Positions 1 to 2,351 of a stretch of 64,000 nucleotides of DNA are shown piece after piece. This stretch comes from Deltaproteobacteria bacterium (lineage in GTDB: Bacteria > Desulfobacterota > GWC2-55-46 > DRQE01), in contig WGFM01000017.1 in NCBI GenBank assembly GCA_015492245.1, positions 102,693 through 166,692 on the forward strand, given 5' to 3'. The translations under genes and the position numbers were made by a program. How positions within the stretch are numbered: the first letter of the stretch is position 1; each line of letters starts with the position of its first letter. The notes beneath the pieces were generated by a model, which saw nothing but the letters and a program-made list of their open reading frames with translations, made no database searches and had not been told where the DNA came from.

Positions 1-438
1 CAGCTCCTCGAGTTTCTGGGCAACTATTGGATCATCGTTCGTGTAGGGTAGCACGGTGAACCCCTCTTCAAGCAGTATCTTCGCTGCCTCAAGGAGTGCC
101 CTGGTATCAGGGAAGAGGGTCTTCCTGTCCCCTATGACCTCAAGCTTTACAAGCTCTGTGCCCAGGGCCTCCCTTGCAAGGTGTGCAGTGCGAACGGCCT
201 CTTCAACGGTGTAGCAATCCGCGGTGTTCGGAAGTATGGTGTACCTTGTGGTATCTATATGTGCAAGAAGTGTGTCCTGCGGGTTCGCAAGGTCCACCCT
301 TCTTACGGCCACGGTAACCACCTCCGTGCCAGATGCCTCGAGGGCCTGCTTCATCACCTCGTTGGATGAATACTTGCCTGTGCCCACCATGAGGCGTGAA
401 GAAAACTCCCATTTGCCTATCCTGAGTCTATCATCCAT
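1..438 (-). CDS. thiG: Thiazole synthase ThiG, partial at window edge
   Basis: Minus-strand translation from ATG at 438 ([29 protein letters not shown]...) has the ThiG N-terminus; follows thiS. Confidence 0.9.
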
Positions 439-471: not shown

Positions 472-675
472 TTATCCGCCTCCTACCATGCGGACTATCT
501 CGACCCTGTCTCCCTCCTTGAGGGTGGTCAGATGGTGCTGGCTACGGGGCACTATCTCGCAGTTGAGCTCCACGGCAGTGCCCTGCTGTGGTATGTCAAG
601 ACCTTCAAGAAGTGTCTTCACAGTGGTGCCCTCTTCTACATCCATCGTCTTTCCATTCACCTGTATCTGTACCAT
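472..675 (-). CDS. thiS: Sulfur carrier protein ThiS
   Basis: Short beta-grasp protein MVQIQVNGKTMDVEEG... ending in Gly-Gly; between thiH-like and thiG. Confidence 0.92.
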   Translation of the reverse strand: MVQIQVNGKTMDVEEGTTVKTLLEGLDIPQQGTAVELNCEIVPRSQHHLTTLKEGDRVEIVRMVGGG

Positions 676-698: not shown

Positions 699-2066
699 TT
701 ATAGATAAAGGTCTCTTCTGCCCTCTTCCAGCTCCTTGAGTTTTTTGAGCACATATTCTCTAACCCTTTCTTCCTTTATCTCTTCCAGTGCCCTTTTAAG
801 CGCGTTTTCGAAAGTCTCTTTCAGCCCATCGAGTTCTGCCTCGAGCATGTATTCTCTAAGCGTTATGATCGCATTTGCCTGGCAGAAGCCCTTCATAAGC
901 CCCTGCGATGTGATGGATGTAAATCGTCTACCCACTCTACCCACCCTGTAGCATGTGGCACAGAGGCTTGGCAGCCTGCCCTCTTCTATGACATCGAGCA
1001 TGACCTCAACAAGCCCTCTTTTATCGTCTGTCGAGAACTGCTCCAGGGTCTTTCCCCCCTGTCTGTATCCGCCGGGGTCTGTGCGCGAGGCCGCACTCAT
1101 CTGCGAGGCACCTGCCTTGAGAAGCTCCCTTCTCAACGAGGCACCCTCCCTCGTTGAGACCACAACCCCTGCTGTGGGCACACTCAATCTGTATATGGCG
1201 GCAATCTTTTTAAGCTCCTGGTCCGTAACACCGTATCTGGTGAGCCTTTGTTCTGTAAGCACCGCACCCCTTGCAGGCCTCATCCTTGGAATAGATATGG
1301 TGTGGGCATGGGTGCCATAGCTTCTGAAAAGATAGATGGAGTGCATGACAGTTGCGAGCACATCGAAGCGGTAATCATAAAGCCCCAGGAGTGCGCCTAT
1401 GCCCACATCGTCGAAGCCTGCCTCGATGGCCCTGTCCATAACCGTAAGGCGCCGGATGTAATCGCTCTTCGGCCCCTTTGGATGCATCTGCTTGTAGGTG
1501 GGCCTGTGGTATGTCTCCTGGAAGACCTGGAAGACCCCGTAGCCTGCCCTCTTGAGCTCCCTCAGGGCCTCCACCTCCATGGGCGGGGCGTTGAGATGCA
1601 CTATTCTTATACCTGTCTCTCTGTGTATTGCCCTTATGGCCTTTACAAGATAGTCCACCCCTGCCTCCGGGTCCTCGCCCACCACCAGAAGAAGCCTCTT
1701 GAAACCCATACCTTCAAGGGTCCTCGCCTCTTCCACCACCTCTTTTTCATCGAGCCGCCTTCTTGGCAGCTCCCTGTTGGGACTTCTGAACCCACAGTAC
1801 CTGCAGGAGTTCACACAGTGGTTCGAAAGATAAAGGGGTGCGAAAAGGACCACCCTGTCTCCAAAGACCTTTCTTTTGACCCTGTCTGCCCGCTCATAGA
1901 CAAGGCTCAAGTGTTCTGGTTCTGTAACATTCAGAAGCCTTACCACCTCATGGGGCACGATTCCACCAAGCCCCTGGGCCTTACCCAGTATGGCAAGGAG
2001 CTCCTCTCTCTCTGGCTCTTCCCTGTCCTCTATGAGCCTCAGTATCTCTTTTTCATCTATTATCAT
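699..2066 (-). CDS. Radical SAM tyrosine lyase, ThiH/HydG family (HydG-type C-terminal cluster motif)
   Basis: CVNSCRYC radical SAM motif; C-terminal CATC-X22-C; first gene after a TPP riboswitch, followed by thiS and thiG. Confidence 0.85.
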   Translation of the reverse strand: MIIDEKEILRLIEDREEPEREELLAILGKAQGLGGIVPHEVVRLLNVTEPEHLSLVYERADRVKRKVFGDRVVLFAPLYLSNHCVNSCRYCGFRSPNRELPRRRLDEKEVVEEARTLEGMGFKRLLLVVGEDPEAGVDYLVKAIRAIHRETGIRIVHLNAPPMEVEALRELKRAGYGVFQVFQETYHRPTYKQMHPKGPKSDYIRRLTVMDRAIEAGFDDVGIGALLGLYDYRFDVLATVMHSIYLFRSYGTHAHTISIPRMRPARGAVLTEQRLTRYGVTDQELKKIAAIYRLSVPTAGVVVSTREGASLRRELLKAGASQMSAASRTDPGGYRQGGKTLEQFSTDDKRGLVEVMLDVIEEGRLPSLCATCYRVGRVGRRFTSITSQGLMKGFCQANAIITLREYMLEAELDGLKETFENALKRALEEIKEERVREYVLKKLKELEEGRRDLYL

Positions 2067-2090
2067 CCTGTTTCTTCCCGAAATAGATAA

Positions 2091-2110
2091 GGCCGCCCAG
2101 CTGGGCGGCC
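2091..2110 (-). promoter_or_regulatory. Perfect 20-nt palindrome (GGCCGCCCAGCTGGGCGGCC) between TPP aptamer and first CDS; probable riboswitch expression platform
   Basis: Perfect inverted repeat 25 nt upstream of the ATG at 2066; minus strand continues TTATCTATTTC. Confidence 0.6.
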
Positions 2111-2159
2111 TCAAAGTGTGTCGATACGATTACCCTACGGCTCTCTAATGGTGAAGACA

Positions 2160-2270
2160 CTTTAAGCCCGACCGCTTCCCTACGCTGGCATTATCCAGAT
2201 CAGGTTCAAGGGGTCTTCCCTTACCCATGGGAACTCTCAGCCCCTCCACAGGGGCTCCCCCAGCAGCCTG
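2160..2270 (-). ncRNA. TPP (THI-box) riboswitch
   Basis: Minus strand contains CTGAGA ... ACCTGATCTGGATAATGCCAGCGTAGGGAA upstream of the thi genes. Confidence 0.95.
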
Positions 2271-2351
2271 GAAAATATACATGCTCCCTCAAAGATTAAG
2301 ATACCAGCAATCGACCATACTGTCAAGTGCTCTGGGATGGCGGGTGTAGCC

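What the first reader, a model, noticed from the sequence alone, without database searches (positions are those of the whole stretch)
699..2066. Thiamine-operon ThiH carries the HydG-type CX2CX22C C-terminal cluster motif
Seen: CATCYRVGRVGRRFTSITSQGLMKGFC = C-X2-C-X22-C, the auxiliary cluster spacing of HydG, which makes CO/CN- from tyrosine. Yet the gene sits behind a TPP riboswitch directly before thiS and thiG, the place of ThiH, which yields dehydroglycine and lacks that cluster. Either a HydG-derived ThiH or a bifunctional tyrosine lyase.
Basis: partly seen in the sequence, partly recalled or inferred. Interest (0 to 1): 0.65.

Follow-up and report, generated by a model that had tools for sequence, protein, structure and literature searches.

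The report
HydG-type tyrosine lyase in thiamine operon
The gene that should make the thiamine precursor in this bacterium is not the textbook enzyme ThiH but a relative of HydG, the enzyme that makes carbon monoxide and cyanide for hydrogenases; its whole lineage uses it in vitamin B1 operons with HydG's second iron-sulfur site kept intact, and databases would misname it as a hydrogenase maturase.

Summary
Window 699-2066 (-) encodes a 455-aa radical SAM protein with C-X2-C-X22-C (residues 369/372/395) at the aligned HydG auxiliary-cluster positions, behind a TPP riboswitch and upstream of thiS-thiG (then lgt-thiE-thiC outside the window). It passes the HydG model (396.9 bits, cut-off 312) and fails ThiH (306, cut-off 380).

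It is not a one-off. In 59 related genomes the same protein precedes thiS-thiG wherever contigs allow, and is missing together with thiG. More members occur in Moorella and in Nitrospirota-, Deferribacterota- and Myxococcota-labelled assemblies. They form one clade (98/97) apart from ThiH. All 52 keep the three Cys; the 35 treed keep the second-site His and every tyrosine-site residue, but replaced several HydG-invariant residues at the auxiliary-cluster end of the barrel.

The own genome has no HydE, HydF, HydA, second HydG, ThiH or ThiO. Moorella, which has HydF, carries a separate second HydG.

Best reading: a HydG-type 2-iminoacetate synthase feeding ThiG, with a retained, retuned second Fe-S site of unknown role. 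A role in [FeFe]-hydrogenase maturation is not supported. Nested in HydG or sister to it: unresolved.

Side lead outside the window: HypC-HydE fusions plus HydG in genomes lacking HypF.

The parts
2298..2326 (-). promoter-like site TTGACA-17-TATCTT upstream of the riboswitch
   Evidence: 10 of 12 matches; consensus match only
2160..2271 (-). TPP riboswitch aptamer (RF00059)
   Evidence: 81.5 bits, gathering score 54.3
2088..2113 (-). terminator-like hairpin between aptamer and start codon, probable expression platform
   Evidence: 11 pairs, 8 G-C; function inferred
699..2066 (-). HydG-type radical SAM tyrosine lyase in the thiH position (455 aa)
1794..1817 (-). radical SAM cluster motif C-X3-C-X2-C (residues 84, 88, 91)
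   Evidence: sequence
1302..1310 (-). His253-Ala254-His255; His255 aligns with the invariant His of HydG GPHTIS; His253 is common in the thi clade and absent in hydrogenase-type HydG
882..962 (-). auxiliary-cluster motif C-X2-C-X22-C (residues 369, 372, 395)
472..675 (-). thiS, sulfur carrier protein
   Evidence: TIGR01683 80.2 bits, cut-off 37.45
1..438 (-). thiG, thiazole synthase (continues outside the window; then lgt, thiE, thiC)
   Evidence: (PF05690)

Best explanation
The gene encodes a HydG-type 2-iminoacetate (dehydroglycine) synthase that does ThiH's job. The N-terminal [4Fe-4S] cluster cleaves SAM, the 5'-deoxyadenosyl radical attacks L-tyrosine, the Calpha-Cbeta bond breaks to p-cresol and dehydroglycine, and dehydroglycine goes to ThiG, which joins it with ThiS thiocarboxylate and DXP to make the thiazole of thiamine; the operon is switched off by TPP through the riboswitch. 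The C-terminal domain and its three-Cys cluster site are kept by selection, but the barrel residues that face it have changed from the HydG pattern, so it most likely no longer builds the Fe(CO)2(CN)Cys synthon; it may hold or gate dehydroglycine, or hold the ThiG-binding surface. Shown here: sequence family, motif, operon, riboswitch, genome-wide absence of hydrogenase maturation genes, conservation pattern. Established for ThiH and HydG elsewhere: the tyrosine chemistry. Inferred: delivery to ThiG by this protein, presence of the second cluster, and its role.
For: HydG profile match over cut-off and ThiH under it; model pLDDT 93, TM 0.95 to 4wcx. Tyrosine-site residues T305, R306, R312, S324, S327 (TcThiH T299, R300, R306, S318, S321, described as conserved in ThiH and HydG in PMC9046217) are invariant in 35 of 35 thi-clade proteins. 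TPP riboswitch at 24 of 25 thi loci scanned; in the exception the gene begins at the contig end. thiS-thiG neighbours. ThiG and the gene occur together in 51 of 59 genomes and are both missing in 4; the four mismatches fit genes cut off at contig ends (Fisher p 0.0005, not corrected for kinship). No classical ThiH and no ThiO over cut-off in the own genome or relatives. No HydA, HydE, HydF in the own genome. G019 (99% complete) has the gene, no HydF and no [NiFe]-hydrogenase large subunit. Moorella mulderi keeps one thi copy and one hyd copy plus HydF.
Against: No biochemistry. ThiG needs only dehydroglycine, so the strict retention of the cluster ligands (three Cys and His255 unchanged over about 20 changes per column of tree length) is not explained by the ThiH role alone. 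A few genomes with the gene are incomplete, so some absences are soft.
Confidence: 0.82

Rival explanations
1. Bifunctional enzyme: it also makes CO/CN or the Fe(CO)2(CN) synthon for a hydrogenase.
For: All three cluster Cys and the second-site His are kept. The own genome has an Mvh-like [NiFe]-hydrogenase, and the CO source of anaerobic [NiFe] maturation is poorly known (own knowledge).
Against: No HydA/HydE/HydF; G019 has the gene and no hydrogenase over cut-off; the own genome has standard HypF; genomes that use HydG for a hydrogenase have a second HydG; HydG-invariant second-site residues R155, N157, T178, P254, T299 are replaced; TPP-controlled expression.
Confidence: 0.08
2. A HydG still making CO/CN that merely sits in a thiamine operon, or has some third role, while dehydroglycine for ThiG comes from elsewhere.
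For: HydG model equivalog score; cluster ligands kept.
Against: No ThiH or ThiO in the own genome; the operon position is kept across 37 genera and several phylum labels, and loss goes with thiG.
Confidence: 0.05
3. A classical ThiH that gained a look-alike Cys motif by convergence.
For: The operon context is ThiH's. With distant HydE as root, grouping of the thi clade with ThiH is not formally rejected (AU p 0.35).
Against: The whole C-terminal domain, not only the Cys, matches HydG; identity about 41% to HydG and 35% to ThiH; position 159 is Asn as in most HydG, not the ThiH Glu; the thi clade is separate from ThiH with 98-100 support for each.
Confidence: 0.05

Closest known systems
HydG, [FeFe]-hydrogenase H-cluster maturase (TIGR03955; PDB 4wcx, 4rtb)
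   Same: Full-length match, same fold, both cluster motifs, second-site His, tyrosine-binding residues.
   Different: thi operon under a TPP riboswitch; no HydE/HydF/HydA in the genome; replaced HydG-invariant residues R155I, N157H, T178V, G253H, P254A, Y298T, T299A (window numbering), at the ends of strands b4-b7 that face the auxiliary cluster; lacks the 4-residue insertion of hydrogenase-type HydG before strand b4.
ThiH, 2-iminoacetate synthase (TIGR02351; PDB 7pd1)
   Same: Operon place, riboswitch, partner genes, radical SAM barrel and tyrosine-site residues; inferred reaction.
   Different: Below the ThiH cut-off; extra C-terminal domain of about 90 residues with a cluster motif; Asn in place of Glu158; separate clade.
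ThiO, glycine oxidase (aerobic route to dehydroglycine)
   Same: Would supply the same product to ThiG.
   Different: Unrelated flavoprotein; not found over cut-off in the own genome or any of 59 relatives.
HypC-HydE fusion with HydG in related genomes
   Same: HydG paralogue present in some of the same genomes.
   Different: Other branches of the HydG tree, hydrogenase context, all HydG-invariant residues kept in all but one member.

Membership tests
ThiH (TIGR02351) | score over curated cut-off 380 bits | tested here: not met
   306 bits
ThiH (TIGR02351) | no C-terminal auxiliary-cluster domain | tested here: not met
   C-terminal domain with C-X2-C-X22-C; the six ThiH sequences lack it
ThiH (TIGR02351) | Glu at TcThiH position 158 | tested here: not met
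   Asn159 in window protein and all 35 thi-clade proteins; Glu in 6 of 6 ThiH
ThiH (TIGR02351) | linked to thiS-thiG and TPP riboswitch | tested here: met
ThiH (TIGR02351) | tyrosine to dehydroglycine, delivery to ThiG | not testable with these tools
   substrate-site residues intact; needs complementation and assay
HydG (TIGR03955) | score over curated cut-off 312 bits | tested here: met
   396.9 bits
HydG (TIGR03955) | auxiliary-cluster C-X2-C-X22-C and conserved second-site His | tested here: met
   Cys369, 372, 395 and His255; cluster itself not shown. That this His binds the dangler iron is from own knowledge of the HydG structure
HydG (TIGR03955) | residues invariant in hydrogenase-type HydG (R155, N157, T178, G253; P254 and T299 nearly so) | tested here: not met
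   I, H, V, H, A, A in the window protein
HydG (TIGR03955) | occurs with HydE, HydF and [FeFe]-hydrogenase | tested here: not met
   none in the own genome, HydF in none of 59 relatives
HydG (TIGR03955) | produces CO and CN- | not testable with these tools
   -

The most novel reading that the evidence does not exclude
The second Fe-S site does real chemistry in thiamine synthesis, for example binding dehydroglycine at its site-differentiated iron and handing it to ThiG, so that this clade is an aux-cluster-dependent 2-iminoacetate synthase and possibly the link from which CO/CN-making HydG arose (thi clade sister to, not nested in, HydG).
Probability: 0.25. Interest if true: 0.75.

Novelty: new variant of a known kind. 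Interest (0 to 1): 0.55.

Why it matters
It shows that HydG-type proteins have a lineage dedicated to vitamin B1 synthesis, so the HydG annotation model cannot be read as evidence of [FeFe]-hydrogenase maturation: 48 of 59 related genomes pass the HydG cut-off and none passes the HydF cut-off. It offers a natural pair for asking what turns a dehydroglycine-releasing tyrosine lyase into a CO/CN-making one: same fold, same cluster ligands, a short list of switched residues at the second site, and organisms such as Moorella that carry both versions. It also bears on whether HydG's second site arose in a hydrogenase or in a thiamine context.

Tried and rejected
Second ThiH, HydG or ThiO elsewhere in the own genome: none. 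[FeFe]-hydrogenase machinery in own genome: none. Convergent Cys motif: rejected by whole-domain homology. Relic domain: not favoured, since ligands are invariant over about 20 changes per column. First tree used ORFs with untranslated upstream residues and a rough alignment; its long branches were an artefact and it was replaced by trimmed sequences. A NosL outgroup gave a 6-unit branch and false attraction; dropped. Rooting with HydE left the order of ThiH, thi and hyd clades unresolved. Key HydG structure papers (PMC4321296, PMC4711877, PMC9154046) are not held, so the assignment of His255 as dangler-iron ligand rests on own knowledge. No paper held describes a HydG-type ThiH; only the open-licence part of the literature was searched. 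The Glu/Asp that PMC9046217 places at TcThiH position 128 in HydG was seen here in only 7 of 46 hydrogenase-type HydG, so it was not used as a marker.

Full report
OBSERVATION. The gene lies on the minus strand, 699-2066, 455 aa, ATG start. Its upstream region carries a promoter-like site (2326-2298), a TPP riboswitch (2271-2160, 81.5 bits) and a terminator-like hairpin (2113-2088) before the start codon. Downstream are thiS and thiG, then lgt, thiE and thiC outside the window. The protein contains C-X3-C-X2-C at residues 84-91 and C-X2-C-X22-C at 369-395. The second motif aligns with the auxiliary-cluster Cys of crystallised HydG.

FAMILY. NCBIfam TIGR03955 (HydG) scores 396.9 bits, cut-off 312.15; TIGR02351 (ThiH) 306, cut-off 380. 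The nearest solved proteins are HydG 4wcx (394 bits) and 4rtb (340), then ThiH 7pd1 (185). An AlphaFold model (27-row alignment, pLDDT 93.3, pTM 0.93) superposes on HydG 4wcx over its whole length (TM 0.95, 1.6 A) and on ThiH over the barrel only (query TM 0.70).

NOT A ONE-OFF. A survey of 59 related genomes (37 genera) found a HydG-type gene over cut-off in 48. Reading the neighbourhoods showed two kinds: one always followed by thiS-thiG, and a second kind next to a HydE. The thi kind also occurs in Moorella mulderi and in assemblies labelled Nitrospiraceae, Deferribacteres, Deltaproteobacteria (Myxococcota in the taxonomy) and uncultured bacterium. TPP riboswitches precede 24 of 25 thi loci scanned; in the remaining one the gene begins at the contig end. 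The gene and ThiG occur together in 51 of 59 genomes and are both absent in 4. In G021 and G040 thiG lies close to the contig start; in G008 and G017 the HydG-type gene lies at a contig edge, so the partner would fall off. Fisher p is 0.0005, without correction for kinship.

NO HYDROGENASE ROLE FOUND. The own genome (rated 100% complete) has no [FeFe]-hydrogenase domain, no HydE or HydF over cut-off, no second HydG or ThiH and no ThiO over cut-off. HydF is over cut-off in none of 59 relatives. Among the five more distant carriers, three have a single HydG-type gene and no HydF; Moorella and one metagenome assembly have HydF and additional HydG copies. G019, 99% complete, has the thi-type gene with neither HydF nor a [NiFe]-hydrogenase large subunit. 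So bifunctionality for an [FeFe]-hydrogenase is not supported, and hydrogenase service in general is not required for keeping the gene.

TREE. In an 87-row tree, 35 thi-operon proteins form one clade (98/97) and six ThiH another (100/100). The thi clade sits among or beside 46 hydrogenase-type and unassigned HydG. A tree in which hydrogenase-type HydG are one clade fits equally well (AU p 0.53; 0.30 with a HydE root), so 'HydG-derived' and 'sister of HydG' both stand. With the HydE root, even thi plus ThiH is not formally rejected (p 0.35), though the shared C-terminal domain and higher identity (about 41% to HydG, 35% to ThiH) argue against it.

RESIDUES. In all 35 thi-clade proteins the three auxiliary Cys, His255, the SAM Cys and the tyrosine-site residues T305, R306, R312, S324 and S327 are invariant. 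These last match TcThiH T299, R300, R306, S318, S321, described as the tyrosine phenolate and amino/carboxylate site shared by ThiH and HydG (PMC9046217). Tree length inside the clade is about 20 changes per column, so the cluster ligands are under selection. In contrast, residues invariant or nearly so in hydrogenase-type HydG are replaced: R155 to I, N157 to H, T178 to V, P254 to A, Y298-T299 to S/T-A, and G253 to H in most. In the model these lie at the first residues of, or just before, strands b4 (155-159), b5 (179-180), b6 (256-258) and b7 (300-303), the end of the barrel away from the SAM cluster. HydG's second cluster lies at the bottom of the barrel cavity, about 2.4 nm from the first (PMC6212873). 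The early-branching members (Moorella, L090, L091) still have G253-P254 but already have I155, H157 and V178. The pattern fits a kept but retuned second site. That these residues touch the cluster is inferred from strand position, not measured.

MECHANISM. Shown: family, operon, regulation, genome content, conservation. Established for relatives: SAM cleavage, tyrosine Calpha-Cbeta scission to p-cresol and dehydroglycine (ThiH and HydG), use of dehydroglycine by ThiG (ThiH) or its conversion to CO and CN- at the auxiliary cluster (HydG) (PMC9046217, PMC6212873, PMC11736057). Inferred: this protein supplies dehydroglycine to ThiG. The role of its second cluster is the open point: holding or gating dehydroglycine, structural support for a ThiG contact, or chemistry not yet known.

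NOVELTY. No paper in the held library describes a HydG-type enzyme in the ThiH role. ProPhylo (PMC3226654) noted that ThiH and HydG profiles are confused by homology, but not this clade. I rate it a new variant of a known kind.

SIDE LEAD. The hydrogenase-type HydG found in seven relatives (G006, G022, G034, G037, G041, G049, G052), one Nitrospirae assembly (L095) and one Micrarchaeota archaeon (L161) each follow a HypC-HydE fusion. In G006, G037, G052 and L095 a [NiFe]-hydrogenase large-subunit gene is within the fetched stretch. HydF is not over cut-off in any of these genomes. All seven relatives also lack HypF, which 42 of the other 52 have (counting fragments; Fisher p 6e-5 overall and 7e-6 among genomes with a [NiFe] large subunit, kinship not corrected). 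Five other genomes with a [NiFe] large subunit also lack HypF without this cluster. The pattern suggests that HydG and HydE supply the CO/CN-bearing iron for a [NiFe]-hydrogenase through HypC in place of HypE/HypF. It lies outside the window; HypE and HypD were not searched.

Noticed in passing
L079 5897-8796 (G037), L080, L081, L082, L083, L066, L195, L095, L161: HypC fused to HydE, directly followed by HydG, in nine genomes including a Micrarchaeota archaeon; no HydF over cut-off; in G006, G037, G052 and L095 near a [NiFe]-hydrogenase large subunit. All seven such genomes among the 59 relatives lack HypF, which 42 of the other 52 have. Suggests HydG/HydE-based supply of the Fe-CO/CN unit of [NiFe]-hydrogenase. 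Possibly more novel than the finding itself.
   Followed up: partly
L079 1751-3364 and the matching places in G009, G010, G011, G013, G056, G057: [NiFe]-hydrogenase large-subunit matches with in-frame TGA codons (one or two), consistent with selenocysteine-containing [NiFeSe] enzymes.
   Followed up: no
L113, L114, L129, L136, L144, L148, L163: A HydG subclade (Bacteroidota, Planctomycetota and others) in which the tyrosine-site residues equivalent to ThiH T299 and S318 are Ala and Asp: substrate binding may differ from standard HydG although HydF/HydA neighbours are present in several.
   Followed up: no
L164 13570-14343 (-), just outside the window: lgt (prolipoprotein diacylglyceryl transferase) sits inside the thi operon between thiG and thiE.
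   Followed up: no
L089, L094, L101, L171: Four hydrogenase-type HydG have Glu at the position where ThiH has Glu158 and other HydG have Asn.
   Followed up: no
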